Assembly (NCBI GenBank): GCA_000827205.1
Contig: KN832561.1
Coordinates: 31,507-95,506 of the forward strand
Direction: 5' to 3'
Length of the DNA stretch: 64,000 nt
DNA from: Plicaturopsis crispa FD-325 SS-3
Lineage: Eukaryota > Basidiomycota > Agaricomycetes > Amylocorticiales > Amylocorticiaceae
The position numbers and the translations under genes are program-made. Below are positions 14,800-44,900 of the stretch, one piece after another. Numbering within the stretch: the first letter of the stretch is position 1; each line of letters begins with the position of its first letter. The notes beneath the pieces are model-generated. The model had not been told where the DNA came from. It was given only the letters and a program-made list of their open reading frames with translations, and did no database searches.

Positions 14800-16430
14800 A
14801 CAACTTGCTCTGTGTCACCATGTTCCGAATGTGCATCTGTCTTTCGGCGGCAACATTCCCCTGCTATAGCTACGATTTGGAACATGAGTTGGCCTCATCG
14901 TTTGCGCTCGGAATCCCTCACCGTTATGATACAGTCGATCGAATACAGACTCGTGCGAAGGTTAAGAGCATGGAATTATTGCATTACACTTAGAGCGATA
15001 TTCCGAAGGGCAGTGGACAACGCCGCCGCAAAGTCACTACAAATTGCCAATGTACATCTCAGGGATCACATCCTCGATAGGCGTCCATCCGCGAATGCTG
15101 GGCTCAGAAAACACTATGCTGTCGCTGGGTACCAAGGTCGTCAACGAGCAGTGATGGTAGGCATCGTCAAATCCACGCACCAAGCTTCGAAGTAAACACG
15201 ATTCAAAGACAACACAAAGAGAGTATGCGAAGAGACCACCGTGTAGAGGATGAATGCACCACCTAGAATGGTAGACAGCGGCCGGCTGGTGCACATTCCA
15301 AGAGAACCCTCCACAGCAATCGGAGCTTCACTGCCAATCGCGAGCCACTGCGAGGAGAGCGCGAGCACTGCCCGATCGAGTAGAGTGCAGCATGAGCACA
15401 GCGGAGGGACATGATATATAGCACCAGCATCTAGACGCAGATGGGAGTACTGGAAAGCACGCGAAAAAGACGGAGCTGCTGGAGCAGTCCCAGGCCATCC
15501 ACCGCTACGCCAGAAAATGATTGACGCACGATCGGGGAGAGCGCGAGGCCTGTGCGATCGAGTATACCCGTTCTGCAGCGGTTGGAGTCGGAGGGACGGC
15601 TCGTGAATGCCGCGACTACGGAAGGAGATATGGGAAGGAGAAAGAGCTCTGAATATGAGAATCGTGTCACTGAATACTTTGCAACTGCGCAAACGTCGCG
15701 ACATACCGCTGCGCCGTGTTTCTTTTCAATAAAGCTCGCCACAGTCGACCGCGGGCGAGCATGCGTGTGCTGTCCTCGGGATCGACTGTTGGGAGCCCGT
15801 GTACAGATGCAGCGGGGGGCCGAGGACGGCAGCCGCAGCGATAAAGGACATGGTCCTTCGTGAGGGAACGCATTCTGCCCACAGATCAGCGATCGGCAGC
15901 GGGCGCGATGTCTGCACGGAGGTGAGGAGTCGGAGGAGGAGGGGAGTGTGGCGAGGACAGCAGACCCTACCACCGCCAGAAAGGCCAGAGACAGAGATGG
16001 GTACGAGGGCTCGAGCCGCCGCTCCAAGGATGCGGATGCAAATGATGATCAACCCGTATTACGCAGCGCCGCCGACACTGTCTCGATGCGCCTCTACTTG
16101 AAGAAAACCCATTTCATCGATCGTCGGGCGCTTGCGCTTGCGCGCCATCCACGCGATCGATTGGCTGCATTCAACATGTAGAGGGGCAGTCGTAACATCG
16201 GACATACGGGCAGGAAAACAATGGCTGTGGATGCATAAATTGCATCGCTCGTCGAACGATGAATGGCGTGGAAAGCGACGACACCTTGACCGATGCAACC
16301 CCCGTGACGCGCCGCTGTACACACCCGCGGCACTCCGAGTTATCAATCGTGGGAGAGCGCCGCGCATAGGCACAGTTCCCCCGCACGCGATCGAGGAGGG
16401 CGGATGATGTATGGATGATGTGCAGCGGGG
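14800..16430. repeat. Hairpin array, unit 0 left arm
   Basis: Imperfect inverted repeats with minus-strand polarity. The best are 15474-15590 (CCACCGCT near 15496 pairing with AGCGGTTGG near 15585, inner CGATCG pair), 15700-15818 (CCGCTGC / GCAGCGG, inner ACAGTCGA / TCGACTGT), 16089-16190 (GCGCCTCTAC / GTAGAGGGGC, inner ATCGATCG / CGATCGAT) and about 16280-16425. Long frames overlapping this region follow the stem GC bias and show no conserved protein motifs. Confidence 0.6.
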
Positions 16431-17600
16431 ACCGTGTAGGGGGAGAAGATTGGTCAAGATGCAGACGTGTAAGAGGTGGCGCGAGCGACGAAAGTAGATG
16501 AGAGTTTGATGAGACTAGTGGATATGGAGGGGTGAAGCATACCATTGAGGCCCCTCGACGAAGAGTGTGCATTGTGGGGGGCCACTCAACGACACAGCGT
16601 CGAGCGAGTACGCGCACTCGAATGAAAACGACTCGGACTTGAAGATCGCGTAGCCTGGCCAGTGGATCGTGCGATGCCGAGAGCCTTCTGTGCGCACGGC
16701 GACGATTGTCAGTCGGAGAAACTGTCGTCGCAAAACTTGGGGGAGAAAGCAGGAGAAACGGGAGCCGAGTTAGCAGCACAAAGAGCTACAAAGTTGCTAC
16801 AAAGAGTCGTTCAATTGGAGGAGAACGTCAAAGACCGTGGGAAAACCGTCTCTTTTCGCACTTAGCCGACTCAAATCCCTCCCTCCTCCTCCTCCCTCCC
16901 CACTTCGCGCGCGTTTTTAAGTCGACCCTCCGCCGCTGAACTGTTTGCTCTCGCCGATCTCGTTTTTTTTGCCAAAGCCCGCGCCCCCTGCAAAGAACAA
17001 AAACCCAGCAGATGTCGTCTCGATGACATGCCTGCTGATACGCACGATTTTACATCTACCGCCTCATTTCTCATTTTTCTATCTCACGCTCAAACTACTG
17101 CCCATCGTCGACCCCGGCCTGCCATCATCCTCATCCCGCCGCTGAGTACCGCTCCTGATCGATTGTGGGAATCGCTGACGCGCCGTCCCTCAATCGATAG
17201 ACCGGGAGAGATCAGTTCTCAGCGGCGCGTTGCGATCGTGCGCCGTCGCGGTCCATATCGATTTGCGATTTGTGGCCCCCGTATCATTTTCATGAGTATG
17301 CATTTTCCAAGGCTATATTGTTGCTCAAACCCTGTTGTTGCTGTCGCCAGATCTACCCCATTTCACCCGCTCTGATCTTAGACTAGCCCATTTCTCTATC
17401 TCGGCAGATGATGCCTGCTTTCCGTACTGTTGTTTGCGATCGACGCGTCGGGCTTGGTCCCTTTGTTTAGCGGCGACTCGGCTCGTAGGTGCGTATCTAT
17501 CTCCACACACGCTCTCGCCCTTCTCTCATTCTAAACGAGTAGCCTCACCAATCCTCCGTTTCCCGCTATGATCCCTCTGCTTACACACCCTTTACTTACA
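16430..17600. other. Centre of unit 0 (no gene seen)
   Basis: The sequence separates left-pointing from right-pointing hairpins. It has a pyrimidine-rich stretch (about 16870-16910) and a TTTTTAA box near 16914. No J-type centre repeat could be identified here. No coding frame is supported. Confidence 0.35.
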
Positions 17601-18760
17601 TAAATCGGTCACGTATGCACCACGATCCTCGAGCGAGCCCAAAATACGCTCCTCTCCCGGACCCTGTGTACCGTGTACAGAACTCCCACCGCCGCACCAC
17701 CTGGGCACGATCAACCACGCAGGCGTCGCGCTCGCCGCACGATGTCCATGGTCGATGTGCTCGTTCCAGAAGGCTTTGGCTGTGGAAGATCCGCAGTACG
17801 TGGCAACGCTCGTCCTGTTCTTTGGATGCTCGTTCCGTCCCTACGCACCCATTTCGACTCGTGAATTTCGCTTGATTGCGTAGAGTCGGCCATCCCTGCA
17901 TACAGAACTCCCACCGCCGCACCCTCGTGGCACTCGACCATGTGCGCGCCGCGCTCTCCGCGCTCCGCCCATGGTCGTTTCTTCACGCCTCGAGCGTGCG
18001 GCGGTGGAAGTTTCGCGGTGCGAGGCCATGCTCGTGTTATTTTTGCATGCGTATCTGCAACATCCCTGTTTACTTGTTCGTGTGGACGACGCGACACGGT
18101 TCTTTTCAGGATGCACATCCGCTTTGTCCGAACACCGATACCCACCCACCCGCTGCAGGCTTCATCGACCCCTCGATTGATCGTGCGCACGATGCGCTTT
18201 CCGCGCAGAGGCTCTCGAACAATGGGATTATGGCGGGGAAGCTCCGCACCTGCACGCAGTTGTGTTGCAGACACGCACCACGCGTCCCGAGCCTCTTCCT
18301 GTTCCTCTACTCTTTGTGCATCCACCCGCGCACTCTCAGACTACAGCCGCTGCGCACTCAGACTACCCCCGCTGCACTCCACTGCACTCTCCCTCAATCA
18401 CGTACGCGTCGCGCTGCTCCGCGCGATAGCACCTGGTTGATTGGATATGGTGCAATGATGCAGCGGCGGTGTGCAGTACGACGGGGTTGTGAATATTCTG
18501 GAGTAATAGATGGGGGGTGTCTTTGTGGTTTTGTGGTTGCTGAGCGGGTGGGTTTTAAAGGCGAGCACGATGGAGGTCTCCTGCATCCTCAGTCCTTCTC
18601 AATCAGTCAACGCTTTCCACGGGATGTTTCTTTCCTCAATGACTTCGCTGGGTCTCTTGTTCTCGCAGTTGTGTCCGCGCTTATACTGGGCTGGGTTACA
18701 TGCAACAGACCGGGACGTTCATCTCGTAAATTATATCCAATTCACTTCTATGGCACATAT
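17600..18760. repeat. Hairpin array, unit 0 right arm
   Basis: The cleanest element is 17911-18007: a perfect 12-bp outer stem (17911-17922 CCACCGCCGCAC with 17996-18007) and an inner CGACCATG / CATGGTCG pair. A weaker copy starts near 17690 with the same CCACCGCCGCACC arm. Others lie near 18140 and 18370-18460 (GCTGCA / TGCAGC, inner CAATCA / TGATTG). Confidence 0.6.
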
Positions 18761-19750: not shown

Positions 19751-20340
19751 ATATCGCCCATACACTTCTCTTCAACCTCGACGGAGCGAGTGTACACATT
19801 GATACATCCATATACACGATATATACCATTGCATTGTACCGTACAACCAACGACGTTACTGACTATAATATACACCTCTGCACAACCTCCCCAAATGAAC
19901 ACGCTAAGATCGCGAGCCGACGAGAAAGAAATGACGTGCTGTACCACAACGCGAAAGCAGTAGCAGACTAAGACCGACACGCCTCCCAATACCGTGCCGA
20001 CCCGCTGCACACTCTGCATCCATGTACCCTGTCGACCGCCAGGAGAGCGCATGTGGGCGCTGGTCCGGTTAAAACGGTCGCGGGGGACGGTGGGCGTGCA
20101 GCGGGGTGAGGCGGGTGTTGCGGGCGTGTCGAAGCATGTGTTGGCCGTGGAGAACAATGACTGTAGGAAGAATGAGTTCGCAAGGGCTCGCTGCAAGGAG
20201 CTGAGCACAGCGATATCCATTGTCGAGATAGCACCCGAACATGATTGGGTGCGTGCAGTGGGAGGCGGGACGTTGCAATAGCTGTGGATATAATGAGACC
20301 GCAGTGAGTAGGTGAATCATCGCGAGCGAGTGCAGGCATC
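19751..20340. other. Left boundary of unit 1, no gene seen
   Basis: AT-rich sequence with TATATACAC and TATATACC runs, similar in character to the other unit boundaries near 25.0, 30.8, 34.2 and 40.1 kb. No coding frame is supported. Confidence 0.35.
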
Positions 20341-20348
20341 GTAAAGCA

Positions 20349-21860
20349 CCGCTGCATGATTCATGCTCAATCACGATCGATCGACGGGGAAACGCCGCGC
20401 ATTTCCCGCACGATCGAGACGGCGGCATGCCATGCAGCGGAATGTGACGGTGGACTGCGAGAGAGTTGCTCGGACTAGCACAATGGATACTTGTGATACG
20501 AAGAATGGATGTAGCAAGGACAGACGACGAAGAGACACCACGCAATCCCCAAGATGCACCGCTGCATAACTCATACTCAGCCTCTATCGATCGTCGGGAA
20601 AACGCCGCGCATTTCCCGAGCGATCGAGATGGCGGGATGGCATGCGGCGGTGTAGGACGGCGGGTACGCAAAGCCCGTGATTTGCTGAAAGCCAACAAGT
20701 CAATGAGTGCCTGCAACTCGATGGATGACTGCAACTCGATGGATGCCTGCAATTCGACGGATGCCTGCAATTTAATGGATGAATGCGAGACCACGGATGA
20801 GTGTGAAAAAAGAGAGCGACGAAGAAATACAAGCAACCTCCACAGTGCACCGCTGCATAACCATGGCTGAGGTCTATTGATCGTTGGGACAACGCCGCGC
20901 ACTCCCCGAGCGATCGAGACGGCAAGATGGTATGCAGCGGTGTAGGACGGTGGGCACGTAGACTTGTTCAGGAACATCAGGTGAACGCAACAGGAACAGA
21001 CGACCTGAGAGAGATCCATGCAACCACCGTAATGTACCGCTGCACCGGGCTGATAGCTCAGCATATCATCGATCGTCGAGAAAATGCCGCGCGCACAGGC
21101 ACGCGTAGTCCGCACGATCGAGACAGTCGAGTGGTGCAGCGGGGTAGGACGGCGGGTGTGTAAAGCCCGTGATTCGACGAGTGAATGCGACGAGATGAAA
21201 AGCCGACAGAGAGATCCATGCAGCCCCCGCAATGCACCGCTGCACCGGGCTGATAGCTATATCATCGATCGTTGGGAAAGCGTCGCGCGCATGCACGCGC
21301 TTCCCGTACGATCGAGATGGCCGAACGCTGTGCAGCGGGGTAGGACGGTGGGTGCGCAGGAACTCCTAGAAGCTACAGTCCGACTAGCAGAAAAGGAGGA
21401 GGCGACACCAACGAGATCCATGCAACCCCCGTTGTGCACCGCCGCACCAAAACTCATGATCCATGGCATCGATCGTCGGGAAAACACCGCGCAGAGGTAC
21501 GCGCGCCCGGAATGATCGAGGACAGTCGAGTGGTGGTGCAGCGGGGTAGAACGACGGCTACACAGTTCTCGTGGTTGTGTCAGGATGGGGTTAGACTGAT
21601 TGAATGCGATGTCAAGCGGGATGAGTAAAAGGCGTGAGCGGGATGAGCACACAACGTATGCGAGGTAAGCACAGAGAGCAAGCGAGACGAAGACGAGATG
21701 CCGACCCCTGCCAGTCGATGGACCATGGCCACCCGCTGCAGGACTTGACTCAATTAACCATAGCTGCGCACCCTTCATTTTCTGCCCGCTCGATCGCGCG
21801 AGCGAGATGTACGCGATCGAGCGATGGAGGGGAGGTGCGCAGCGGGCGGTAGTGGACAGC
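20349..21860. repeat. Hairpin array A (unit 1 left arm), seven copies about 200 bp apart
   Basis: Outer arms pair as follows: 20349-20358/20431-20440 (CCGCTGCATG), 20557-20567/20642-20652, 20848-20858/20932-20942 (CACCGCTGCAT, perfect), 21036-21046/21133-21143, 21235-21245/21330-21340, about 21439-21449/21534-21545, and 21763-21772/21834-21843 (GCTGCGCACC, perfect). Inside most lies a second stem, ATCGATCGT...CGATCGA, capped by GGGAAA/TTTCCC. In the last copy the inner stem is an 11-bp perfect pair, 21788-21798/21812-21822. Flanks CCACCGT and ACGGTGG extend several stems outward. A 20-bp tandem repeat (about 20700-20810) sits between copies. Confidence 0.8.
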
Positions 21861-22019
21861 CGACAGCGGGTGGTGGTTCAGAGCGGGCAGGGTTGGCGGA
21901 GAAGAAGAAAGAGAAAGGAGAAAGGACAGGGTGGATAGAGTGCACACGCGATCGATGAGCCCGGGTTCAGCGGGGTCCGGTGTAGCAAAGGACTGGTTAG
22001 CACGAGAACGAGAGGGTTA

Positions 22020-22430
22020 AGATGAGGACCACGATCGATGACGCGCTGACGACGGGCGCTGGCCGAGTGAGCATTCGGTCTCTGGAGAGCGAGTGGGTGA
22101 GACGAGCAAGAGCGGTCGTCATCGTCGAGCTCGACCTCCAACCCAATCTCGGCATCGCCCGGCCACGCTTCTCTCATCGATCTCCTCGTTCGCCTCCCTT
22201 TCTCTTTCTCTTGCTCTGCCCATGCGTATGTCCACGACCACCCGCTGGAGTGCTCGCTCACGATCAACTCGACCTTGTGCATCCGCGGGTGCCCAAGCTC
22301 TAGTGGGTCGAAATACTGCAGCGGCTGTCCTCTCGACGACACTGCCCATGCTCGTTTCCTCAGGCCTTGTTTTCGTCCTTCTCGCACGCACTCGTCTCTC
22401 TGCATCTAACAATGACTACTATGCTATGTG
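22020..22430. repeat. Higher-order unit centre J1
   Basis: Contains the 12-bp palindrome GTCGAGCTCGAC (22124-22135). A 22-nt stretch at 22145-22166 (core ATCTCGGCATCGCCCGG) recurs exactly at J2. A pyrimidine-rich tract follows at about 22180-22220. Confidence 0.6.
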
Positions 22431-23226
22431 ATCCCGCCTGTCTGTTGTCCTCGCTTCAGGTATCACTATGCTCCCGCTACATACCAGCTTCAGACGTTTG
22501 TCGCTCTGCCTGCACTCGCTTGCCGCTACATTCGCTTTCCACGCTAAGCCCCACACCCGCCGCGTTCGAATCCCCCCGCATGGTGCTTAGCCCGTGATCT
22601 AGGGCGAAATGAACATTTTGGCGACTGAGAGGTTTGATTGCGCCTGTCTGCTGCCCAATCCTCGTGCGTACGGTCCTTGCTCTATATATTTTCTTGCTCG
22701 TGCGTTTCTTGATCGTGCGCGTGCGTGCATTCCGCTCTGCCGCACCCAGACCACCCCTCCTCCCCGCTCAAGCAACGCATCACACAGTGGATCGCGCGTC
22801 TCAGACTGGATCGCGCACGCGCAGACCCCGCGTTCTTCACGCAGCGGTATCACACGATCCATCATCCAAAGTTATCGCACGATCCATCGTCATGATATCG
22901 TAGCATAGCGGGGAGGGTAATCATAGGGTGGGACTCGGTCTGCATTTCAACGCTCGGCCCACATTTCGCCATTCGTGTTCTCTGCGCTTTCACCATTTGT
23001 GCTCTCAGCTGTCTTCACCATTGGATGCCACGCATTTGACGCCCACATCCGGCACCTTTTCTCCCAGTCTCGATCATGCAGCTATAGCGCTCACCGCGCG
23101 GTGGCTTATGATCTAACTTGGGAGAGAGTATCCGGTCAGTGGTTCGTTACGTCGGCGTGCAGCTCAACGTCGCGCATGCACGCAGTTTCAGAGATCCATT
23201 TCAACTGGTCCTCGATATCCATATCC
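22431..23226. other. Gene-free spacer in unit 1
   Basis: Scattered direct motifs only. No coding frame or clear hairpin was found. Confidence 0.35.
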
Positions 23227-23318
23227 TAGCTCTGTCTTTCACCGTCCGCTAGCCCTGCCTTTCACCGTCCGCTAGCCCTGTCTTTCACCGTCCGCTAGCC
23301 CTGCCTTTCACCGTCCCA
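23227..23318. repeat. 23-bp minisatellite, four copies
   Basis: The unit TAGCCCTGYCTTTCACCGTC (plus three bases) repeats four times head to tail with C/T changes. Confidence 0.8.
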
Positions 23319-23339
23319 TCACCATTGTCTCTTCCGCCG

Positions 23340-24600
23340 TCCAACGTCTCGCACCACACCGTCGTACACGGTCCACCACCGCTCCCTCCTCCGGCGCACT
23401 CGCTCGTGCAGGCGCCGTGCTGCCATTAATATTGTCTGCGCGGCGGCACACGAGCGATTGCCCATCTACTTTCCAGCAGGGTAGCGGTGGGGCTTTCGAG
23501 GGGTACGGTGGTGACGGCTGCTCCCATGTTCTCGGGGTTTTCGTTTTCTCTGTGTGGTCTGCTTATCATCGACGCGTCGTTGCTCATCATCGACACGCCG
23601 TACTCATACTATAGACGTCTCTCCGGCTGTCATTCGAATCATATCTTCAGTTCAAATTACGGTCTCCCATCACCGCCCTACATCGTCTCCCCCCGTTCCC
23701 TTACACAGTCCCACGTCGCCGCCGCCGTACACGGTCTCCCACCGCTCCCTCCTCGGGCGCACTCGCTCGCTCGTGCCAGCGCCGCGCTGGCATTGTCCGC
23801 GCGGCGGCACACAATCGTATATGCGCGCCGTTCGTACAGGGTAGCGGTGGGTCCTCCGAACGGTTACGGCACCGACGGCTGCTCCCATGTTCTCCGTTTT
23901 TTTTTTTCGTTTTCTCTGTGTGTCTACTTATCATCGACGCGTCGTAATCATCATCCACATCTCGCCGGCTGTCATCCACCCAGCTCGAGTTGTACTATCA
24001 GTTCAAATTTGTGGTCTCCCGCCGCCATCCACGGTCCACCCGGTCACCCACCGCTCCCTCCTTCGACGCATCCGCTCGTGCAGGCGCCGCGCTGGCATTG
24101 TCCGCGCGGCCGCACACGAGCGATTACCCATCTACTTTTCAAGCAGGGTAGCGGTGGGGCTTTCGAATGGTACGGCGGCGATACCTGCTCCCATACTCCC
24201 GCCACTCTTGTTCTTGTCCAACTCTAACCCTTATCGGTCGCTCTCCGCCAGTCTCCACCTAATGTCAACCGCTCCAACTCTCTCGTCCGCGCCTAGCTCA
24301 CACAGCCCGCAAGCCCCATGCGTGACCGGTTCATCGGGAGCTATGCTGAAGGCAAAGGAGTCGAAGTCGGAGCGGTGGCTACTAGGGGCTAAGAGTACGC
24401 GCCTGCCGATGGTCTTTGCTCTTTCGTGCGTTCGAATCGCATTTTCCTACCCGCTACCAGTGCTGCCATCCGCTATCGCTTATCCGCTGCCACCCCACGT
24501 TGTCTCTACCATCCATCGTGTCGCCCGCGCCTTGCACCGTGCACGCACGATTGATGCCCAGATGGAGACGATGGGCAGCGGTTTTCATCTCTCATTTTTA
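23340..24600. repeat. Hairpin array B (unit 1 right arm)
   Basis: Three near-identical hairpins have arms CCACCGCT/AGCGGTGG at 23376-23383/23483-23490, 23739-23746/23843-23850 and 24048-24055/24150-24157. They carry GCGCGGCGGCACAC-like loops and extra outer pairing such as GTACGGTGGTG. A fourth, different hairpin is at 24484-24491/24574-24581 (CCGCTGCC/GGCAGCGG). The long plus-strand frame across 23.9-25.0 kb reads through these repeats and has no protein signature. Confidence 0.75.
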
Positions 24601-25440
24601 TTTGTTTCTTCGTTTGCGCTTGCTATGCGATTCCCCGACCCTTCGATAGACCCGGGTACACACAGGCGAACACCCGTTTTACAAAGACCTGCTCGTCCGC
24701 CGCAACCTACCAAACGACCGCCCTCTGTCGTGCAGCAAAGCTCGCGGTCGCCGCGCAGCGTTGGCTCTCGATCGATGTTAGGCTCCTGGTCTGATGGTTG
24801 TGGCGGATGTATGGTTCGCATGCAACAGGTGGATTGCTTACAATCCGCACCGAGGACTACTTACAGCCCTTACTCTCGTATACCTACAACCTTGACCCTC
24901 GTACCTACAGCCCTTACTCTCGTTGGCAATGGTCCAGTTTCCTTTGAAAACTCGCCATGTCAACTCCGTAGTTGACCGTATCATAACACAATGTCAATGC
25001 ATAATATATAGGTGGTTGTTCAACTCAGACATATCGTACTCAGGGTCTACATAGAGTGGGGTATGGACATATATCCGTCGCAGCAAGATATACATCGTGT
25101 ATGCGATACATGCCCTCCGAACGCGTCCGCAATTACTTTGTATCGCACTGCAACGAGTCCAGGAACGCGGGAGGGCGACTGTGGAGACCACGGATACATT
25201 GTCAGTGGACCGCCTGTATAGTAGAGTATATACGCGCGAAACACGCACCCTTTCGAGTAAGTGCAACGGCAGCGTCAGTCGGTAGAACCGGAGAGGGGTA
25301 TATTGATACAGCGCGCACGAGAACGAACATAGCCGCAAGAACACGACCACGAAAACGCCAACGCCAACGCACGCCAAGAACGCGAAACGTTAACCCAAAA
25401 CACGTATAGGCAAAAGGCGCGCTCCACCGACGACGTCAAG
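24601..25440. other. Unit 1/unit 2 boundary, no gene seen
   Basis: A roughly 21-bp tandem motif (CCTACAGCCCTTACTCTCGT-like) lies at about 24860-24925. AT-rich sequence around 25000-25130 marks the boundary. Confidence 0.35.
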
Positions 25441-25443
25441 CCC

Positions 25444-26900: not shown

Positions 26901-26929
26901 CAGGGAAGGCAGCGATGTAGAATGGGCCG

Positions 26930-29060: not shown

Positions 29061-29065
29061 CACAC

Positions 29066-31480: not shown

Positions 31481-31489
31481 CAGTCACCA

Positions 31490-32440: not shown

Positions 32441-32790
32441 CGAACAGTATAAATGGCGTGCAAGGCCGTGGAACATGGTCGACGACTGGTCTACGATGCA
32501 GGAAAGATACGGAGTACGTCGTGGTGGAGGTCAAGTGGAGGTCGTCAAGAACATCGAGCACGATGAGCTCGATAATCGATCTCGGCAATGTCCGAAGTCG
32601 ATTTCCTCGTCGCCTTCGCTTGGCCTTCGCTTTTATCCACGTCTCTCCCGTAGTCGTCTCTCTAGTCACCTATGGCCTCAGGATAACGCCTGTCTACTCG
32701 TCTGTCTATCGGAAACGCTCAAGCATTGCCCAAGTACCGAAATTGTATCACTTCCAATTCATTTTGTGCCACAGCAGCGCGCCGCGGTCG
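32440..32790. repeat. Higher-order unit centre J3
   Basis: A 24-nt stretch at 32572-32595 (core ATCGATCTCGGCAATGTCCG) is identical to J4. A TATAAAT box lies at 32449. After a pyrimidine-rich tract, a TGTGCCACAGCAGCGCG segment also matches J4. Confidence 0.65.
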
Positions 32791-34080: not shown

Positions 34081-34500
34081 GTCGTCTTTTCTTCCCGTGA
34101 TTTTCTCATGTACAATCGCTATACTCACGCAAAACCTACCCTGCTATCCCTTTGACGGCTCGGACGGTCTTGCGCCGGCGTGTCTTCTCCTTCCTCGTAC
34201 TGCTAAGTAGATCGAGATGACGGCCAAAACCATGTATTCCGTGTAACTATGATATTTACATGCACTGCTACCTATACGAATGCGCCAGCCTAAGCAGACG
34301 TCCAACACTAGCCTGACTACCACTCGAGTGCCCGAGGCCAGAACCGTGAACGGGTGCATCTCTATGAAAGGGAAGAAAAATGTTAGATAACCAGGAGCGA
34401 ACGACACAGAACAGGCCGCTCGTGCCGCGTACAGACACGCAGAAATACGCGTGTCCGTGATATTCCCTGCAAGAGAAGTCGGCGCATAGAGCCCCACCGA
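34081..34500. other. Unit 3/unit 4 boundary, no gene seen
   Basis: AT-richer sequence without coding support. Confidence 0.35.
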
Positions 34501-34506
34501 ATTAAC

Positions 34507-35640
34507 AACCCCGGACTCCCGCGCGTGATCGAGAAAAAGAAGCATGGCTTCATACAGCTGCGCCTGCCATCGGCAACGGGCTCTGGAGGATCCATGGGTG
34601 TTTTTCTCTTACTACACGCGGGATTGCTGTGGGGTATGGTCGATGCGAGACATGTGTTCTATAGCAAGAAAGCAAAAAAAGCGAACAAGGTGAAGACACA
34701 CGTCACTGCGCCAGTGTTTCCCGAACACCCGCGTGTTATAGAAGAGAAGGAACATGACTTCACGCAGCCGCAGCTGCCATCGACAGCGGGCCCTATGATG
34801 ATCCATGGGTGTTTCCCTCGTTTAATGCGCGGGATTGGTGGGTACTATGGGCGGGGTGGCGCCGACAAGCCAAAAAGAAAACAACCTCGGAAAGGAGCAC
34901 ACGCACGGCCCCGCATCAGCCCTACGAGACTCCCGCGCGCCGTACAGAACGAACAAAATGGATGCATTCACACAGCCGGGACTATGAGCAGCCGGCTGTC
35001 GGGGATGCAGGTGCTCTGCCCTCCGGCGCGCGGGATGTTGCCAGGGATGATGTATGGGAGACGTGCGTTCTGTATCAGAAAAGCGAACAAGGTAAGGCGC
35101 ACAGCGCTCAAGAAGCTCCCGCGTCAGCCCTAAGAGACGCCTGCGCGTCACAGCTCACAAGGGAAAAGAATGCATCCACACAGCCGGGACTGTGAGGAGT
35201 CGGCTGTCGGGGATGCAGACGCCTCGCCGGCGTGCGCGCGGGGGTGGTGTGGGTGTACGGCGGCACGGACTGGGGAAGATGGACGAGGCGGGGGGATGTG
35301 CTGTAGATGTCGTGAAAACACGTGGGCGCCAGCGTGTCGTCGGGCCAATGAATGTGGATCTGCGAACGTGAATGCGACCGACGCAAGACAACGACGGCGC
35401 ATATGCGTTCGAGAAAAGCGCGAAGCATTGAGGAGATGAATAACAAGGGGAGCGGGAATTCGCACCGGACGCTCATCACTTGCATCGACAGGTTGTGTGC
35501 TCCCGCGCGAGTACATAACATCTGGAGCCCAATGAGTTCGCAGGCTAACAGCTACTACGAGCAGGTGTGAGGTATGAGGACGCAGGGGCAAGGTAGTGGA
35601 CACGCGCGGGAGGGTGATGGGTCGAAGAACGCGTTCGCAG
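34507..35640. repeat. Hairpin array G/F (unit 4 left arm)
   Basis: 34514-34520/34617-34623 (TCCCGCG/CGCGGGA), a diverged copy at about 34728-34840, 34932-34942/35024-35034 (CCCGCGCGCCG, 11 bp perfect), a diverged copy at about 35114-35255 and 35500-35509/35603-35612. Spacing is about 200 bp. Confidence 0.7.
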
Positions 35641-35950
35641 GGGCGGACCTAGTAAGGATATAGAAAAGGGAAAAGAAACACGGTGGCGAAATACGCACCG
35701 GGGTGTCCTAGATTGTGATCGAACGACGCTCTCGTTTTGTACCGTCTTTGAACGGAGAAACGCCAGGCCTGCGACATTGGCAAGCGACGGTCGACAGAAC
35801 GACAGAAATCGCTTTGGGGATCGATAGAAAGCGTATCCTGGTAGGGCCAAAGTCGTTTGAAGATCCGTTGACCATGAGCGGTGGACAGGGCATTCAGTGG
35901 CAAAGGATCGATAGCGGCGGCAACGTCTCAACGACGGAGACGTAGGTGAT
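35641..35950. other. Gene-free spacer in unit 4
   Basis: No coding frame or hairpin could be supported. Confidence 0.3.
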
Positions 35951-36330
35951 GCATAGCGACGAGCTTGAAGCCATGTCCGACGACGAACGGTCGGAATACG
36001 TCGTGGGTGTAGTCGAGAATGTAGCAAGGTTAGAGTACGTCACGTCGATGGTCGTGGAGGTTGTGGAGGAGTGGAACGTGGAGAACGTCGAGCTCGACGT
36101 CGATCGATAATCGATCTCGGCAATGTCCGAGCCTCGAGGTCGATGTCCTCCCTCTCGTCCTCTCCGTCTCTCTCGTCGCCCATGGCTTCACCACATCGCC
36201 TCGCCACGTCGCCTCTCTACCGAGCTCGAGCATCCTCGCATTGAATTTGTATGATGCCCCATTCTTTCTGTGCCACATGTACAGCGCGCTCTGCTCTCCA
36301 GTTCGTCCCGCTGTTCCTCCTCAGGCCTTC
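35950..36330. repeat. Higher-order unit centre J4
   Basis: 36107-36130 is identical over 24 nt to J3 (32572-32595). It contains GTCGAGCTCGACGTCGATCG and is followed by a pyrimidine-rich tract. Confidence 0.65.
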
Positions 36331-37215
36331 ACACACACTCGATCGACTATGCCGAGGGCGCATGCTCTCTTCTCTCGATTGAATGTTATGTGGAGCTCGC
36401 ATCTGTGGGTAGCAGCGGCACGTCAGGACCTCAAGCAGCCGCGCTAGCCCCTCCCTACTGGTTGATCTCAGCTGATCGATAGTGCTCACTCTCGATGAGT
36501 ACGCTGTCTTGTCCTTTCTCCTCCGTATGCCCTCGTATCTGCTTACCGCAGGATCCCACCACCACGCTTATTGGGCCCAATCATCGATCGCGGACGTCCT
36601 ATTGCTCGGACACCGTGCCCGCTTGTGCATATGCTCCCGATCTAAATATCCGCCCACATGGTGCGGCGGTGATTCTTCTGCTGCGGTACGACAATGCTGT
36701 CTTCTTCCTTACTATGCAGTCTCCTGCTCCCGTCATTCACAGTGTGTGCTCCAAGTGTGTCGAAACCCACCCGCTGCGTCACGCTTCGCTCGATCGTGTA
36801 GACCTTGTGCGCTCTCAACCCTGCCCACCGCCATACTACCCTCCCACTGGTCCACACACAACACCCGCTTCATGGTCTTTAATCGCACGGTCGCGCGCCC
36901 CGCGCGGTGTTTCTTCACCGTGCAGACACGGGCGACCTAAGTCCTTATTGCACCATTCAATGGCGGGTGTACACTGTACGTGGCGACGAGGGTGTACGCT
37001 TTCCAGCGACGCGGGCGCCTTACTTCTCGTGTAGGTCTTATTTGTGCTGCGCCCCCCAGCCTTGAGGATCAATCAATCGTCTTGAGACATTGCGCGCGCG
37101 CACGATTGTGTTCGATGCTCTTACTACCGCCTCTGCACCTGCGCAACCCTCCCGCGTTAGCGTTCCGCTTTTGGTCTAGGCCACACACTTCCCACTCCGT
37201 CCCTCCCGCGCACGC
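36331..37215. repeat. Unit 4 right arm, proximal part
   Basis: The CACTCGATCGACTATGCCGA-like stretch near 36337 matches 32818 and, more weakly, 27990. An ACCCGCTGCG arm near 36772 precedes CTCGATCGTGTAGACCTTGT, the shared apical pattern. Stems are poorer here. Confidence 0.45.
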
Positions 37216-37219
37216 ACGC

Positions 37220-38665
37220 ACACCACCCGCCCCAGTGCTCCTTCGGCCCGCTCGTCGTTGGCGCGCTCGGGATGACTATCCCAGACTGCGCGGCGAGCTT
37301 CCCGAAGAAGTAGCACTGGGCCGGGTGGTTCGTCGGCGCGGGCGGTCTTGCGCGACATAGTTCCTTGACCTCTCAATCGTAGCCGCTTTGCTTTGTCCTT
37401 CGTGCATCTTCCCTTGTCCTTTCCTTGCTTTGGGTGCTCCGGTGTCTATTATCTCGTTCACGCACACCTTGCGCACGCACACCACCCGCCGCAGCGCTAT
37501 CTTCAGCCCGCTCGTCCTGGATGGCCATTTATGGACTGCGCGGCGAGCTGCCTGAAGAAGTAACATTGTGGCGGGTGGTTCGTCGGCGCGGACGGTCTTG
37601 CGCGTCATAGTTCCTTGACCTCTCGTTCGTTCTTCGTTTCTCGTCTTGTTCGACACACACACGCACACACCGTCCACGCATGCACACGCACACCACCCCG
37701 TCCCCGCACACACCACCCGCCCCAGTGTTCCTTTGGCCCGCTCGCTGACAGCGCGTTCTGGATGACTATCCCAGACTGCGCGGCGAGCTGTCCAAAACAA
37801 TAACATTGGGTCGGGTGGTTCGTCGGCGCGGATGCCTGCCTGGTTTGTGTATATTCGTGTCCTCAGATCTCATTTGAAGTCTGTTCGCGTGCATCTTCGC
37901 GTGTCCTTTGCTTTTTTTGGGTGCTCCAGAGTCTATTATCCCGTTCACGCCATCCTCTTCATGCGCGCGCACACCCCGTCCACGCACACCCCGTCCACGC
38001 ACACACACCACCCGCCCCAGTGTTTCTTCGGCTCGCTCGCCCACAGCGCGTTCTGGATGAATATCCTAGACTGCGCGGCGAGCTCCCGTAAAAGTAACAC
38101 TGTGGCGGGTGGTTCGTCGGCGCGGACGGTGTTGCGCGTCATAGTCCCTTGGCCTCTCGTTCGTAGCCTCCTCGCTTTTCGTTCGTCTCTTATCTTGCTC
38201 GCTCCAGAGTCTGTCATGGACGCACACCATCCCGTCCACTCACACACACCATCCTGTCCCCGCGTACCCCACCCGCCCCAGTGCTCCTTCGGCCCACTCG
38301 TCGTTGGCGCGTTCTGGATGACTATCCCAGACTGCGCGGCGCGAGCTGCCGTAAAAATAGCATTGTGGCGGGTAGTTAGTCGGCGCGGAGATTAGTGAGA
38401 CCTGCAGCAGTGCGTTGGCATCCTGTACATCTTGCGTTTGTTTTTTGTTTTTTGTATCTCGTCTTGTCCGTCTGCCTTTGTTCTTCGTTTGTCGCCCGTA
38501 TCTCATCTTGTTTGACACACACACGCACACCCCGTCCACGCACGCACACAACCCGCCCCAGCGCTCCTTTGGCCCGCTCGCCCACAGCGCGTTCTGGATG
38601 ACTATCCCAGACTGCGCGGCGCGAGCTACCAAAACAGTAGCATTGGGGCGGATGGTTCGTCAGCG
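37220..38665. repeat. Hairpin array L (unit 4 right arm), six copies
   Basis: Copies start at about 37222, 37481, 37713, 38009, 38270 and 38551. In the first, ACCACCCG (37222-37229) pairs with 37322-37329, CCCAGTGC (37231-37238) with 37313-37320 and CTTCGG (37241-37246) with 37302-37307. The loop keeps GGATGACTATCCCAGACTGC and a GCTCG/CGAGC pair. Between copies the third stem block changes as CTTCGG/CCGAAG, CTTCAG/CTGAAG and TTTGG/CCAAA, so pairing is kept. Confidence 0.85.
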
Positions 38666-38774
38666 CGGACGGTCTAGTGCCCTCTCCCTCTCGCCCTCTC
38701 CCTCTTGCTGGTATTGTCATCTGCATCTGCCATGCGAGCCCCAGCTGCAGAGATAACTTGCCGCTAGCTACGCA

Positions 38775-39975
38775 GTGATGTACCCCCGCCACGGTGACGG
38801 ATACTCACTCCATCGTGCGGATGTCGTTGTCCGGCGATCGATGATATTTCCGCCACAAAGGCGGGTGTTCGTCCTAGTTGTCGCCGCAACACTACCTTTT
38901 ACACTGCAATATCCCTTAGCGCTCATTTTCTGCGGGCTGCAATGTCTTTCATCACGCATGCACATCGCGTACACATTCGCTGTCTCCGTGCAAAACCAAC
39001 CACCGCTGGTTCATGTGGGATCCCCGCTCGTGTAGACGTCGCTTTCCGCGTGCGAGTGCATGATCGGTACTCCTGTTGGGATATGTGGTCAATCTACCTA
39101 GTATTCGTGTTCATCCCTTTCCTATTTCCTTATTTGGACTTAGCCCCTATGTGAACTTCCTTCGGACGGTTATTCGGACTCCGGAACTTCGTTGGACATT
39201 TTCGAGTCGTTCTCACTTTGCACGTCTCATCTTCGATACTGAAGCTGAGACGTGAGTACAATCATTCTATACTTACATTCACTTTAACTAAGCATTCCTT
39301 TACCTAGTCTATTGTTAGGTACATACAGCAATGCTATCATCTTCGATACTGAAGCTGAGACTCTATTGTTAGTTAGCTGCCTGATATTACACCTACAACT
39401 CCAATCATCAATCCAGTGGTGGTGGTTTTCCTCTGCACGGTACGGTGTCCACGATTGCTATCTTCTCCCTCTCCCTCTCGTGCCCATCCGATGCGTACAC
39501 GAAATGCCACCGCTATCTTGTCTGGGATCCCCGCTCATGCATGCACCGCGCTTTCCGCTTGTGTTCGGGCGTATGATCGGTTTCCCTCCAAAACAAGCCA
39601 TAGCGGTGGTAGTTAGGCTATTGGCACGGTACGGTGTCTGCAGGTACTATCTTCCCTCTTTTGACCTCTCCGACGTCTCCTTGGAAGCTTACCACCGCTC
39701 TCTTGTCTGGGATTCCCACTCATGTAGACGTCGCGCTGTCTCATGACCGGTTTCTTCAACCCAACCGTTAACGGACCGGTGGTCGTTCTCTTCGTGGTGC
39801 GCCGGCTTTGTATCAGCTTACAGTTACTATCTTCTCTCATGCGCCCCTCCGACGTGTAAAGTCTACCACCGCTAGTTCATGTGGGATTCCCGCTCATGCA
39901 GGCGTTGCGCTGTCCGCGTGCGGGTACATGATCGGTTTCTCTTCAAACATAAAGTAGCGGTGGTGGCTCTATTTG
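38775..39975. repeat. Hairpin array M (unit 4 right arm, distal)
   Basis: 38785-38790/38860-38865 (CCCGCC/GGCGGG), 39507-39515/39601-39609 (CCACCGCTA, perfect), 39691-39697/39777-39783 and 39865-39874/39955-39964 (ACCACCGCTA, perfect). A copy at about 38999-39110 has lost its 3' arm. Loops share GTGGGATTCCCGCTCATG. Confidence 0.78.
39228..39372. repeat. Short direct duplication, 110-bp period
   Basis: ATCTTCGATACTGAAGCTGA plus three bases occurs at 39229 and again near 39339. TCTATTGTTAG is likewise repeated close by. Confidence 0.7.
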
Positions 39976-40500
39976 GCACGATACGGCGGTGTTATATTGT
40001 ATGTGCCCACGTCTGATACTGATTGTCCTTGTGGATAGTTTCGTTCTCTCTTGCATCTTTCCTGTAGTTCCGAGGCACGGAGGAAAGTGTTCGAAGGAGT
40101 CGAGGGACATGATGTGGGCCGTAATGTACTTGGATCACTAACTTATGTATTAATCCTACATGATCGCTACAAGCATGAAAAAATCCTCCGTTGCAAATGA
40201 ATAATTACTGTCACACTAAGTAAGTACATCCTACGCGCCAGCGCGCCCGCAGGACTAGCTCGTACGGCATAAAGAGGCCGTGCAGCACATCGACTCGGAT
40301 ATCATGGTCCAGCGACACCGAATCCATACCCTCGTCTGAAGAGTCAACGTCAGCGGGGGCTGGTGCAAAAAGATTTGTATAGCCAACACGCACCCTGTCC
40401 TCCATGCACGAGATAAATCAAGTAGAAAGACATTCAACAGCACCGATGAATGGAGCAGACAAAACGAGACGAAATAGCAGAGATGTGCATACGCGCGCAC
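39976..40500. other. Unit 4/unit 5 boundary, no gene seen
   Basis: AT-rich, gene-free sequence. Confidence 0.35.
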
Positions 40501-40522
40501 TCCAACGTACACATCAACCAGC

Positions 40523-41650
40523 CTCCCGCGCGTACGAGTTGTTCACCAGGATGGATCTGCAGTAGAACTGCTGCATATAGCAGCCTGCTGCGCTGCAGAT
40601 ACATTCGAGAGCACCCGTTCGCGCGGGAGTTGAAGGAGATCTGTGTTTCGTATGGCCGCGAAGAGGATAGCGGGGAGGATGGTGGCGGTATGAGGAACAG
40701 GAGGGGTTGGCAGCCTTTCGTCCGATGGACGGTTCGTTGCGGATCTACACTGGAACAAAAATACGTCCGTGGAGGAACAAGACCCTGGTGCTAGACAATC
40801 CACCCCGTGAAGCACGAACACAGAGCCGTAGCCCTCGTTTCGTCGTAAGTGAAGCAGTACACAGATGCGCGCAAGCATTTCCGCACGCCACGTACCCATC
40901 GGCCAGCTTCCCGTGTGAACAAAATGATGGGGACATGCATCCACAGAAGTGTCACTGCGCTGTGCAGCGTGCTGCGCCGCGGACACATGAGGCGACCACA
41001 TGGACACACGGGAGTGGAGGCTGTCTGGGCTCGTAGGCGGCGAATACGGAGAGCTCGTACGGCGGCGAGTACGGAGTTGTATGTCGGCGAGTGCGGAGAG
41101 CAGACAAGAACGCGTACGCGTACAACACATTTGTGTCTATCACATCCTCGCACGTTTCGCATTTCGAAGAACCATGAATCTGATTGGGAACGACTGCGAC
41201 ACGCAGATGGCCCGGGGTGAAGATGCATGTGCTCGAAGACAAAAATGCGCGGGAGGGGTGATGAGACGTCGATGGATGTACGGCAGTGAGCGTAGGGTAA
41301 ATTGCAAGTGACGTAGGATGGAGAGAGGGTTCGAGGGTTCAGGAAAGAGTGAACTGACGCAAGATGACCGCGAACATAGCTGCAGAAGGACAGCTGTCCT
41401 ACGATATCTTCAGGCGAGACGAGCGACGCGGTAGCGGGTTGATATGGTGAGATGTGCTATGGCATACCTTCTAAAGCAGCATTACACGGACGATATATAG
41501 CGATGCATTGTGAGAACGATGTCGTAGAGGACATCCGAGAGCACCGATCTCGCGCAAAACAGAGATCGACGGGCGAGGGCGACTGGGGAGGCGACGAGAT
41601 AGATGGCAGTCGATGACTTTGAAGGCATTGCGCACTAGCTCAGCGCTCGC
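40523..41650. repeat. Hairpins of unit 5 left arm
   Basis: 40523-40532 (CTCCCGCGCG) pairs perfectly with 40620-40629, with an inner ATCTGCAG/CTGCAGAT pair at 40555-40562/40593-40600. 40910-40917 (CCCGTGTG) pairs with 41005-41012. Confidence 0.65.
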
Positions 41651-41689
41651 ACAGCAGGACACAAGGAGAGGTGGAGAAGTAGAGGATGC

Positions 41690-41990
41690 AAAGTACGGTC
41701 GTGGAAGACAAGACGTCGCGGACGTCGAGCTCCGAGGACGAGCTCGATGCCTTCACATCGATATCGGCAATCCCCGGGCGCCCTCATCGTTGTCTTCGAG
41801 TTCGCTCCCAACCCTTTTGCCTCCTACTTCCCACCCATTTTTCTATCTGCCTCTCGTATGCGTCCCTGTCCGTCTTCGTGTATATTGCTGCGTCCCACTT
41901 AGCGTCCCAGATCTCAGCACCCCTCGCCGTCACCGCTGCTGCATACTTGCTCGAGGTCGGTAGCCCTCAGTTGATCCATTTTGTGCGCAA
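41690..41990. repeat. Higher-order unit centre J5
   Basis: GACGTCGAGCTC and GACGAGCTCGATG, then ATCGATATCGGCAATCCCCG at about 41757-41776, a diverged copy of the J3/J4 core. A pyrimidine-rich tract follows. Confidence 0.55.
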
Positions 41991-44900
41991 GGCATCTCGA
42001 CAACGCCATCTCGCATACGGCGTACAATGCTACTACCACTACCCTGCTCGCGATCTGTACCAATCGACGCGCCCGGCCATCTCGTTGAGTACACGCCCAT
42101 TTCCTTGCAATTTATATCGACCGCTTGCACCCCTACCCAATGTCATCGCACGCCCATGCCACCCCCGCTGCCTACCTTCCAAAGATGCAGCATCGACCGT
42201 AACTCTCGTACTCTCTGTGTGGTGACTCGCGATACATCCATCCAAGGTTCTTGTAAGGTAGCCGCAGCGGCGAACATTTGGCTTATCGATCTCATCATGT
42301 AGTGCCGTCTCATACGCACCCGTACGCTCTCCCGTGCCAACGAGTCCTCTCATGCAGGCATCCCGTCTCCTCGGACATCGCGACCTATGGATATATTTAG
42401 TGGTTCTCACCCCCTCTCGGCTTGGGTTTTTTATCCGTGTCCGCGCGATGGACCTGGTCTTCGATTCTTTTTGCCATAGGCCTCGCACGTCCCTCCGCCA
42501 CCGTACAGACCCACCGCGGCCTATGCGGACCCATCAGCTGCACCGGAGTCGTGCCCTCCCCTCCCCGTGGAGGTCACGATCGGGCACTGATGGAAAATGA
42601 GGCTCGGTGCCGCGGTGCTCTTTGCTGCGCGTCTAGCATGCATTCACACCCTCTCAATCCCATCCGTACGCGCGCACCCTCTCGCTTCAGAACCATACGC
42701 ACCCTGCCTCGCTATGCACCTGCCCGTGCCTCGCTGCCCACCCACCCGCTGCGCTCTCAGAAAACCCTGTCGATCGCGCGGCCGCGCAGCGGCTCCCATC
42801 GTATGTGTCAGTGAAGTTGCGGCGGCGAATGCGGGCTTCGCGGGTGGGGGCTGCTTTCCCCGTTTCGTAACCTATTGCTCTGTGGCCCATGCTCCCTTCG
42901 TCGCGATATACTCGCTCTATCTTTTTATGTTTGCCAACATCACCGCTGCCGTAGGCGACCACTAGATTGTGGATGCGTCGCGCTCTCCTCGTGATGACAC
43001 ACAGTCAATGCAATGCGACGCTCCTCTCACAGGCAACGCTGGTTCATCGCAAGCTGTACAATAGCGTCTGCGCTCCTTCCTGTGGTCTAGCTTCAATTTG
43101 TTACTTTCATCATTCTCCTCGTGCTGTTCTCTTGTCGCCCGCGGACGTCTACCCGCTGCATCCCCTCCGTTCCTCGAATGTGCAGGCCCTGCGCTCGGTG
43201 CGCGATGGCTCACGACCGATTATCCTCAGAGAGGGTTCAGCCGCAGATGTGCTGCTTTACAGGCTGGCCACAACGCGCCCTGTTGTGAGGCCCGCCGTCC
43301 AATTCCGGTTCCCCTCCGCTACCATCGTAAGGGGCAGCTGCACGCTCCTTACCGCCGCGGTGTATCTTGGCATGGCCCTCGATCGCGCAAACCTCGCGAA
43401 GGGGATGGCGTGCGCGATCGATTCCAAGTCCAAAGTGCCCAGTGGATGCCTGGGCTGGCAGAGCATCCCTCCATTCATTTTACTGTGCATTCAAGCATTA
43501 TGATCTATAATGACGCATATCGTGCCTTATGATTCACGGAGTTGCTATGCGTCACCTCGCTCGCGGATTGGGGCATTATTTCTTTGCTGGCTGCTACTTC
43601 TCAATTGCTGCCGTCGCTGCACACAAAGTTCCCGCCGCTGTGGATTAGGGCATTGTCCTCAATCGTGCTGCAGCTTATGGCGCCTGATCGATAATCTCGT
43701 CTTTTCTACTTAGCGGCGGCATATTCTTTGGCATGCAAGCAGCATATCGAAACATACGCGGAGTCGACAGCTCGTCTACACCAGGACTTCTACCATTTCT
43801 ACTTCCTTGCATTTGTTTTCAATCAGCCCGCCGTCCGCGCGCGTCCCCGTTGTACACATCCACCGCTGTGCTCCCTGCATTTGGATCAGTCATGCGTCGC
43901 GTTTTCCGCGTGATTGCGCCTGATCCTTGACCTTATTAGGGAGCCAGCGGTGAATCGTCTGCTCACAGTGCGCTGGCGTAGTGTGGTCCGTTCGCGTTCG
44001 CTGTCCTTCGCATTTTACTTTCTACTTGCGAGTACTCGCAAGCTTTCCGTTGCATAGCACAATTTTCTGTGCGCTCCCTGCTCCTTCTCTCTGGGTACAG
44101 ATATCGTCCGCCTTCCCCCACTCGATTTGCTGAGTAGCGTCTTAGGTCCTGCCCTTGTCTGCTAGGAGAGCGTGCTACCCACGCATACGGGAAGCCTCAA
44201 GCTAATCTACGGTATGTCTCTTATGTCTCTGGTCACAATATTCCTCTGACTTGTATGGGAATGAAGATGCTACAGTTTGACTACGACGGATGCAACAGGA
44301 TGGAAGAAGGACGCAAGCCGAATGACATGAGGAGCGCCGGGGAGGAGCAATCCCGGCATTGTCCGCACGCATATATGCTCAAGTACTTTCGTACGATGGT
44401 AAGTCCGCATTAACACTCTCACCCACCATTTGCCGTCGTCAGCAACCCAAAACACTGTCCCCTTGTCCATGCACTTCTCCAGGTATTCACGCTTTTCGAG
44501 TTCTTGTCCGTCGATACTTACGTGCGATTTTGACTCTTATAGGGATAATGGATCGCGTAGACATCGTGCAGTGCTACCTGCATGAACGACAGCTCTCCAG
44601 GACCTGCAGCTCTGTAGCACGACACTTGGCAGCGCCGCAGAGCCTCCGAACATTTGCGATCCTCGGCGATCGACGGCAATCGTCACATGCCATTCGTCTG
44701 CTTTTGCGAGCCGACGCCCGCCGACCACTAGGCCGTGCAGGGACCATCTCGCTCTCCCTGATCGATGTCTCGGTGGCCCCCTACGGACTATTACCGCTGC
44801 GCGTCTGTACCATCGTTCAATCCTCTGGCAGACCTCTAGGCGTCGCGCTCTCCGCAGATCATGACAGGAGGTCGATGGTAACCAGCGGTGAATCAACTCT
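41991..44900. repeat. Hairpins of unit 5 right arm
   Basis: 42741-42749/42840-42848 (CCCACCCGC, perfect), about 43632-43640/43701-43709 (CCCGCCGCT-type) and 43861-43876/43938-43952 (15 paired bases with one bulge, inner GGATCAG/CTGATCC). The last lies at about 44785-44895 (ACCGCTG/CAGCGGT). The TGCAGGCCCTGCGCTC apical pattern is at about 43180. No protein gene is supported. Confidence 0.65.

What the first reader, a model, noticed from the sequence alone, without database searches (positions are those of the whole stretch)
14800..44900. A 30-kb gene-free block made of about fifty nested hairpin elements
Seen directly: dozens of inverted repeats with exactly pairing arms (for example 17911-17922/17996-18007, 29620-29632/29707-29719, 34932-34942/35024-35034, 43861-43876/43938-43952). 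Most have an outer GC-rich stem, an inner CGATCG-containing stem and a 90-150 nt span. They form sub-families (A, B, C, K, F, G, L, M) at 200-360 bp spacing. I know no fungal element family with this architecture. Possible explanations are hairpin small-RNA precursors, a structured non-coding RNA family, foldback elements or a specialised chromatin domain.
Basis: partly seen in the sequence, partly recalled or inferred. Interest (0 to 1): 0.92.

Follow-up and report, generated by a model that had tools for sequence, protein, structure and literature searches.

The report
Subtelomeric array of covarying hairpins
Near one chromosome end of a fungus lies a 30-kb stretch without recognisable genes, packed with dozens of related hairpins of about 100 letters whose paired arms have changed together, which points to an undescribed family of structured non-coding elements.

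Summary
Window 14.9-44.9 kb looks non-coding and is rich in inverted repeats (12-23 per 5 kb in its five inner windows, 2.4-4.0 in shuffles). Many belong to one family: about 100 nt, outer stem, inner stem, GCGC apical stem. A covariance model finds 71 elements, 40 in the window and 31 in an inverted partner array beside the telomere; the best hit elsewhere in 234 kb has E 0.57. Stems covary beyond a phylogeny-preserving null (0 of 400), also the inner stem, which did not serve to find elements. The two main stems are 86-89% identical between the arrays, spacers and flanks 59-72%. All 71 lie on the pyrimidine-rich strand of their sub-array. Sub-arrays form six divergent units; a 15-nt centre motif occurs six times in the 33-Mb genome, only here. 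Apart from two inserted mobile elements the searched array DNA matches only this locus. Best reading: divergent long non-coding transcription units carrying tandem hairpin modules, perhaps Dicer substrates. Transcription is not shown, and G-T and A-C mismatches are equally rare, so RNA is not proven over DNA hairpins. No Rfam family matches.

The parts
14900..16660 (-). Unit 1, left hairpin sub-array (elements 15307-15407, 15498-15584, 16087-16187, 16308-16431)
   Evidence: skew; covariance-model hits
16668..16682 (-). Unit 1 centre motif, one mismatch, reversed
16850..18700 (+). Unit 1, right sub-array (17136-17229, 17686-17786, 17911-18008, 18366-18470)
19900..22140 (-). Unit 2, left sub-array, CCGCTGCA type (20345-20443, 20555-20653, 20846-20943, 21033-21145, 21233-21341, 21435-21547, 21762-21843)
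22147..22161 (+). Unit 2 centre motif TCTCGGCAWYGYCCG
   Evidence: 6 of 6 genome matches lie at array centres; reversed control 1
22200..25000 (+). Unit 2, right sub-array, CCACCGCTCC type (23043-23143, 23376-23491, 23739-23851, 24048-24158, 24481-24585, 24697-24807)
25250..27750 (-). Unit 3, left sub-array, CCTCCCGCA type (stems 25450-25575, 25930-26058, 26449-26552, 26748-26855, 27360-27464)
   Evidence: 26449 weakly by the model (E 0.12)
27802..27816 (+). Unit 3 centre motif
27850..30750 (+). Unit 3, right sub-array, CCGCCGCAG and CCACCGCT types (27965-28071, 28294-28397, 28834-28941, 29070-29168, 29381-29481, 29620-29720, 29834-29935, 30027-30126, 30236-30336, 30486-30585)
30900..32500 (-). 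Unit 4, left sub-array, CTCCCGCGCG type (31185-31283, 31494-31597, 31719-31830, 31950-32061)
   Evidence: no model hits
32580..32594 (+). Unit 4 centre motif
32650..34200 (+). Unit 4, right sub-array (33080-33178, 33500-33606, 33932-34035)
34300..36050 (-). Unit 5, left sub-array, CTCCCGCGCG type (34517-34623, 34914-35052, 35500-35612)
   Evidence: no model hits
36115..36129 (+). Unit 5 centre motif
36150..40050 (+). Unit 5, right sub-array: CCACCCGCCCCAGTG type (37202-38672) and CCACCGCTA type (39507-39610, 39692-39783, 39866-39964)
   Evidence: 38009 and 38553 weak model hits (E 0.12, 0.41)
40150..41700 (-). Unit 6, left sub-array, CTCCCGCGCG type (40523-40629)
   Evidence: no model hits
41761..41777 (+). 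Unit 6 centre motif, diverged form
41800..44900 (+). Unit 6, right sub-array (42165-42270, 42512-42617, 43153-43247, 43632-43720, 43860-43954, 44790-44893)
   Evidence: 43153, 43632, 43860 by the model; the others by stems

Best explanation
The block is a locus-specific array of non-coding hairpin modules. Six units of roughly 3.3-5.8 kb stand in tandem. Each has a centre and two sub-arrays of directional hairpins pointing away from it. I read each centre as a bidirectional promoter giving two long non-coding transcripts of about 1.5-3.9 kb, each carrying several modules of about 100 nt, often about 200 nt apart. The modules fold as RNA into an outer GC-rich stem, an internal loop, an inner CRATCG-type stem and a GCGC apical stem, and the stems are what selection keeps. 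Most likely next step: Dicer cuts the hairpins and an Argonaute takes up one arm; the best-conserved 22 nt is the 5' arm of the inner stem. SHOWN: hairpins, family relationship, covariation, stem conservation, uniform direction, non-coding pattern, locus-specific DNA and centre motif, presence of RNAi gene families. INFERRED: promoters, transcription and its direction, RNA rather than DNA as the pairing molecule, dicing, any target. Split: real family-wide pairing structure under selection about 0.95; pairing acts in RNA about 0.55; RNAi precursor specifically about 0.35.
For: Covariation on 45 elements: score 0.296 v 0.147+-0.009 shuffled (0/500), 140 v 55 double-change cells, slid controls 0.03-0.10; inner stem alone 0.311 v 0.151 (0/500), slid 0.02-0.15. 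Phylogeny-preserving null: inner 0.316 v 0.109+-0.033, outer 0.302 v 0.116+-0.031, 0/400 each. Identity between the two arrays (19 elements): inner stem 88.9%, outer stem 85.9%, apical 77.2%, third short helix 75.2%, 5' spacer 71.9%, flank 69.7%, 3' spacer 59.3%. Model hits of E<0.5 only in the two arrays among 234 kb. 71 of 71 hits, including 26 of 26 not used to build the model, score best on the pyrimidine-rich strand. Centre motif 6 times in 33.2 Mb, all at centres. Piwi, RdRP and RNase III domains in the genome. Best-conserved 22 nt is the inner 5' arm.
Against: No expression data. G-T and A-C mismatches are about equally common: 28 v 34, 54 v 71 over all model pairs, 36 v 43 in core pairs, both about 0.4 of the null, 19 v 25 between the arrays; RNA stems usually tolerate G-U better (recalled). 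Fold z equal on both strands (-3.69, -3.77). 36 of the 71 elements also reach E 0.02 on the other strand, mostly far lower but for some weak elements within 1-3 bits. The third helix is no better kept than the apical part. Between the arrays single pair-breaking changes (30) outnumber double compensations (5). Two robust count measures are modest: 18 v 13.7 pairs (3/500), 46 v 41.4 types (25/500); inner stem 10 v 7.1 (12/500), 23 v 21.3 (123/500). The long internal loop is unlike compact fungal mi/milRNA hairpins (PMC9757828, section 11). One genome only.
Confidence: 0.5

Rival explanations
1. The pairing works in DNA. The modules extrude as cruciforms or form hairpins in single-stranded DNA during replication, and are bound or cut by a structure-specific protein as a chromosome-end domain.
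For: G-T and A-C mismatches are equally depleted, as expected if both strands must pair; fold z equal on both strands; the partner array lies directly beside telomere-like repeats.
Against: Elements are directional and always score best on one strand of their sub-array (71 of 71), and sequence of the 5' inner arm is kept; a symmetric cruciform needs neither. The divergent units with shared centres look like transcription units (inference).
Confidence: 0.2
2. The hairpins are kept perfect by mutation, not selection: replication template switching copies one arm onto the other, giving compensatory changes without G-U intermediates. The block would be a decaying subtelomeric tandem repeat.
For: The mechanism is described (PMC8794818, abstract and outline seen; PMC3820800, search listing only). 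No G-U preference. Same-branch double WC-to-WC changes are seen (about 9).
Against: Copying does not by itself slow a stem's evolution, yet the main stems are 86-89% and flanks 70% identical between the arrays. Two short stems are kept either side of an unpaired loop although most units no longer align by blastn (pieces over 150 bp). Eight columns are invariant.
Confidence: 0.15
3. The hairpins are protein-binding modules of long non-coding RNAs (scaffold RNA with repeated stem-loops) rather than Dicer substrates.
For: Repeated directional modules with conserved sequence and structure; long internal loop; conserved positions beyond the paired ones around the inner stem.
Against: No transcript data; no candidate protein; the family diversified much between units.
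Confidence: 0.2
4. Foldback or MITE-type transposons inserted many times.
For: Inverted-repeat arms; two real mobile elements do lie in the block.
Against: Searched array DNA matches nowhere else in the 33.2-Mb genome (counts are lower bounds; 14.9-16.5 and 26.9-27.6 kb were not searched). Direct repeats across element ends are at shuffle level (6 nt or more in 3 of 71, 3.4+-1.9 expected). Tandem order, uniform direction.
Confidence: 0.03

Closest known systems
Fungal mi/milRNA hairpin loci (as reviewed in PMC9757828)
   Same: Hairpins outside coding, transposon and Rfam sequence; RNAi gene families present in the genome.
   Different: Dozens of related modules in tandem at one locus; long internal loop; no sRNA reads available. 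The words cluster and tandem do not occur in the main text of that review.
Plant/animal polycistronic miRNA clusters (recalled)
   Same: Several hairpins of about 100 nt per presumed transcript; lower stem, internal loop, upper stem.
   Different: No homology shown; one sub-threshold Rfam match to MIR3440 at 37708-37825 (31 bits, cut-off 105, E 0.005), which I take as shape only.
lncRNAs with repeated stem-loops such as roX or the Xist A-repeat (recalled)
   Same: Repeated conserved stem-loops in long non-coding RNA.
   Different: Here about 70 modules in about nine divergent units; no known protein partner; transcription not shown.
Quasi-palindromes shaped by template switching (PMC8794818)
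   Same: Compensatory changes without visible G-U preference.
   Different: Main stems evolve slower than their flanks, and the two-stem plan is kept across diverged units.
MITE / foldback elements
   Same: Inverted-repeat arms.
   Different: Single locus, tandem, directional, no dispersed copies found, no target duplications.

Membership tests
Fungal mi/milRNA locus | Precursor folds into a hairpin better than shuffled sequence | tested here: met
   46 of 71 elements z below -3, controls 1 of 71 each; elements were chosen for pairing
Fungal mi/milRNA locus | No overlap with coding sequence, transposon or structural RNA | tested here: met
   the two mobile elements lie between elements
Fungal mi/milRNA locus | Discrete small-RNA reads from an arm, dependent on Dicer | not testable with these tools
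   no RNA data held
Fungal mi/milRNA locus | Hairpin kept in related genomes | not testable with these tools
   no other fungal genome held; only the partner array on the same contig
Any Rfam family | Score at or above the gathering cut-off | tested here: not met
   0 matches in window, L005, L006; one match with E up to 1 in window 14800-45000: MIR3440, 31 of 105 bits
MITE / foldback transposon | Dispersed copies in the genome | tested here: not met
   (lower bounds)
MITE / foldback transposon | Target-site duplications at the ends | tested here: not met
   mean longest direct repeat 3.83 v 3.83+-0.09 shuffled, 71 elements; element ends are approximate
Protein-coding repeat gene family | Codon-position bias of changes and indels in threes between copies | tested here: not met
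   aligned half only
Neutral template-switch quasi-palindromes | Stems evolve at the rate of neighbouring sequence | tested here: not met
   19 elements
Structured RNA family | Covariation beyond phylogeny | tested here: met
Structured RNA family | G-U tolerated more than A-C on the transcribed strand | tested here: not met
Structured RNA family | Transcribed | not testable with these tools
   no RNA data held

The most novel reading that the evidence does not exclude
A new kind of genetic locus: a telomere-proximal array of divergent units, each organised around a centre motif found nowhere else in the genome and each dispensing directional hairpin modules that diversify while keeping their pairing, as a dedicated source of structured guides or scaffolds, with pairing constraint equal on both strands.
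Probability: 0.3. Interest if true: 0.9.

Novelty: categorically new. Interest (0 to 1): 0.75.

Why it matters
Seventy-one modules of one covarying, directional family at a single nuclear locus, without any Rfam match, would be a new structured family in an RNAi-competent fungus if transcribed, or a cruciform array at a chromosome end if the pairing is in DNA. Ordinary RNA and DNA mapping can tell the two apart, which makes it a directly testable case.

Tried and rejected
Coding potential: rejected. Splicing signal: none on either strand. Strand of folding from MFE: raw differences favoured the purine-rich strand but not after shuffle correction. A first G-T/A-C count over all stems between the arrays gave 46 v 21 in favour of G-T on the purine-rich strand; restricted to pairs of the model it is 25 v 19, so I do not lean on it. 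A permissive stem count was uninformative. Pol III genes: of the 52 elements given to that test (of 71), T-runs within 60 nt after 19 and before 13, no support. CpG loss: none. Skew as proof of the sense strand: 25 coding-like ORFs have GC skew -0.056 and AT skew +0.013 on the coding strand, so sense = pyrimidine-rich strand is inference. Inner-arm motif with one mismatch: 5 of 19 genome matches lie off C8, reversed control 5, chance level. Phage collection, one query: no match. Paper searches listed nothing that describes such an array by title and abstract start; only those term sets in the held library were searched.

Choices before counts: of 112 candidates I picked 51 by eye as fitting the plan and aligned 45, leaving out W16312, W24484, W42512, W43632, W43858 and W44790. 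Candidates were found by their outer stem, so outer-stem pairing is partly selected for; the inner stem is the fairer test. Orientation in the training set was set by skew, so only the 26 untrained hits are an independent check of direction. One search used 19 of 21 aligned window elements. W24047 gives many of the double changes and may be aligned to a non-orthologous copy. The 71 elements are the 107 hits with the 36 weaker opposite-strand hits removed by hand. The null is my own Fitch-based script, not R-scape.
Full report
WHERE IT IS. The window is C8:31507-95506 of a 33.2-Mb genome in 49 contigs; C8 is 1.75 Mb. I take the organism for a basidiomycete from gene style (inference); species unknown. 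The block sits at C8:46.4-76.4 kb. C8:78-525, which ends in three CCCTAA repeats (505-522), is 90% identical to the first 449 bases of the longer contig C1, so I read it as a chromosome end. Directly after it comes a second, inverted array (C8:523-14,936 aligned; elements to 15.3 kb). The two arrays are 79% identical over 12,764 aligned bases, against window 14.9-31.7 kb only. About 31 kb lies between them with gene-like ORFs; those checked by Pfam include a mitochondrial carrier and a formyl transferase.

THE ELEMENTS. Stem density is about 3 to 8 times that of dinucleotide shuffles in the array windows, except the right edge window which is mostly outside. Oriented to the pyrimidine-rich strand, candidates show one plan: CCACCGCTGCA, spacer, CTCRATCGTGCAGGC, GCGC hairpin, GCC.ACGATYGATT, spacer, TGCAGCGGTGGA. 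Sub-families differ in both arms together: CCGCTGCA/TGCAGCGG, CCGCCGCAG/CTGCGGCGG, TCGCTCGTG/CACGAGCGA, TCGACCATG/CATGGTCG. CGATCG itself is in 24 of 71 elements. A covariance model finds 71 distinct elements at E up to 0.02, 40 in the window and 31 in the partner array; over 18 sources, 234 kb, the best hit outside the arrays has E 0.57. Of 56 same-strand start-to-start distances under 600 bp, 34 are 174-250 bp.

MORE THAN CHANCE OR DESCENT. The column shuffle and slid controls and a null that keeps the tree and the number and type of changes per column (my own Fitch-based script in the manner of R-scape, 400 replicates) reject independence, including for the inner stem alone. Two count measures are less extreme: pairs with changes on both sides 18 v 13.7 (3/500) and further pair types 46 v 41.4 (25/500) for the whole structure; 10 v 7.1 (12/500) and 23 v 21.3 (123/500) for the inner stems. 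Between the arrays the two main stems are the slow part, the 3' spacer the fastest, and the short third helix is not special. This argues for selection on the stems rather than arm-to-arm copying alone.

UNITS. GC and AT skew flip every 2-4 kb. At the purine-to-pyrimidine flips lies TCTCGGCAWYGYCCG, found six times in the genome, all at array centres (window 22147, 27802, 32580, 36115 and two in the partner array; reversed control 1). Unit 6 has a diverged form and unit 1 a reversed one-mismatch form. GAGCTC stands within 50 nt upstream in 7 of 7 centres looked at. By strand, the 71 elements point away from the centre between their sub-arrays. So the block is six tandem units (about three in the partner array) of two divergent sub-arrays. 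Most units no longer align by blastn (E 1e-10, pieces over 150 bp), so the plan is older than the sequence similarity.

LOCUS-SPECIFIC. DNA searches covering window 16.5-26.9, 27.6-40.0 and 40.0-45.3 kb find the array sequence only on C8 (the tool calls its counts lower bounds; 14.9-16.5 and 26.9-27.6 kb were not searched). Exceptions are two insertions: a TIR element at 18746-19776 with similar copies on many contigs and no counterpart in the partner array, and an LTR-like piece at 39074-39397.

MECHANISM. The divergent, directional arrangement argues for transcription from the centres. RNAi gene families are there: Piwi over the cut-off at four places on C1, C4 and C16, RdRP at six places, RNase III domains in close pairs on C11 and C7 and further single ones. 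The most conserved 22 nt is the inner 5' arm. Against an RNA-only reading, G-T and A-C mismatches are depleted alike (36 and 43 observed, 91 and 98 expected). In the reconstructed histories G-T states go on to a Watson-Crick pair more often (15 of about 18 departures) than A-C states (6 of about 13), a weak hint of RNA on the pyrimidine-rich strand. I put RNA at about 0.55 and DNA at 0.2, the rest being neutral upkeep or unknown.

COMPARISON. No Rfam family reaches its cut-off. The review of fungal mi/milRNA loci (PMC9757828; abstract, found passages and section 11 seen) asks for intergenic position, sRNA support and conservation between genomes for its first tier; the last two I could not test. 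Filing the block as a milRNA cluster would be premature; it may work like one.

Noticed in passing
window 18746-19776: Insertion with terminal inverted repeats (about 1 kb), similar copies on many contigs, missing from the partner array; looks like a non-autonomous DNA transposon.
   Followed up: partly
window 39074-39397: LTR-like piece with 96-98% identical copies on C19, C6 and C22, on C19 and C6 in pairs 4-6 kb apart as LTRs would be; shorter matches on more contigs.
   Followed up: partly
window 45638-47542 and 49145-51082 (-): Two similar ORFs that join the C-terminal part of an inositol-pentakisphosphate 2-kinase domain to an F-box-like domain; the N-terminal kinase part is in the ORF 51075-51911 next to the second. 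An unusual fusion.
   Followed up: partly
window 45354-45433 (-): tRNA-like gene predicted by ARAGORN at the right edge of the block, anticodon unclear.
   Followed up: no
window 54915-61285 (-): Long open frames that look like a Ty3/gypsy-type retrotransposon (by eye).
   Followed up: no
L005:78-525 and L020:1-449: Two contig starts (C8 and C1) share a 90% identical stretch; in C8 it ends in three CCCTAA repeats and the hairpin array follows directly.
   Followed up: partly
G000 contigs C1, C4, C16 (Piwi); C2, C3, C4, C7, C12 (RdRP); C7, C11, C1 and others (RNase III): Several genes of each RNAi family in this genome.
   Followed up: partly
window 44352-44370: Sequence resembling the centre motif (CCCGGCATTGTCCG, by eye) before the last hairpin at 44790, perhaps the remnant of a seventh unit.
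   Followed up: no
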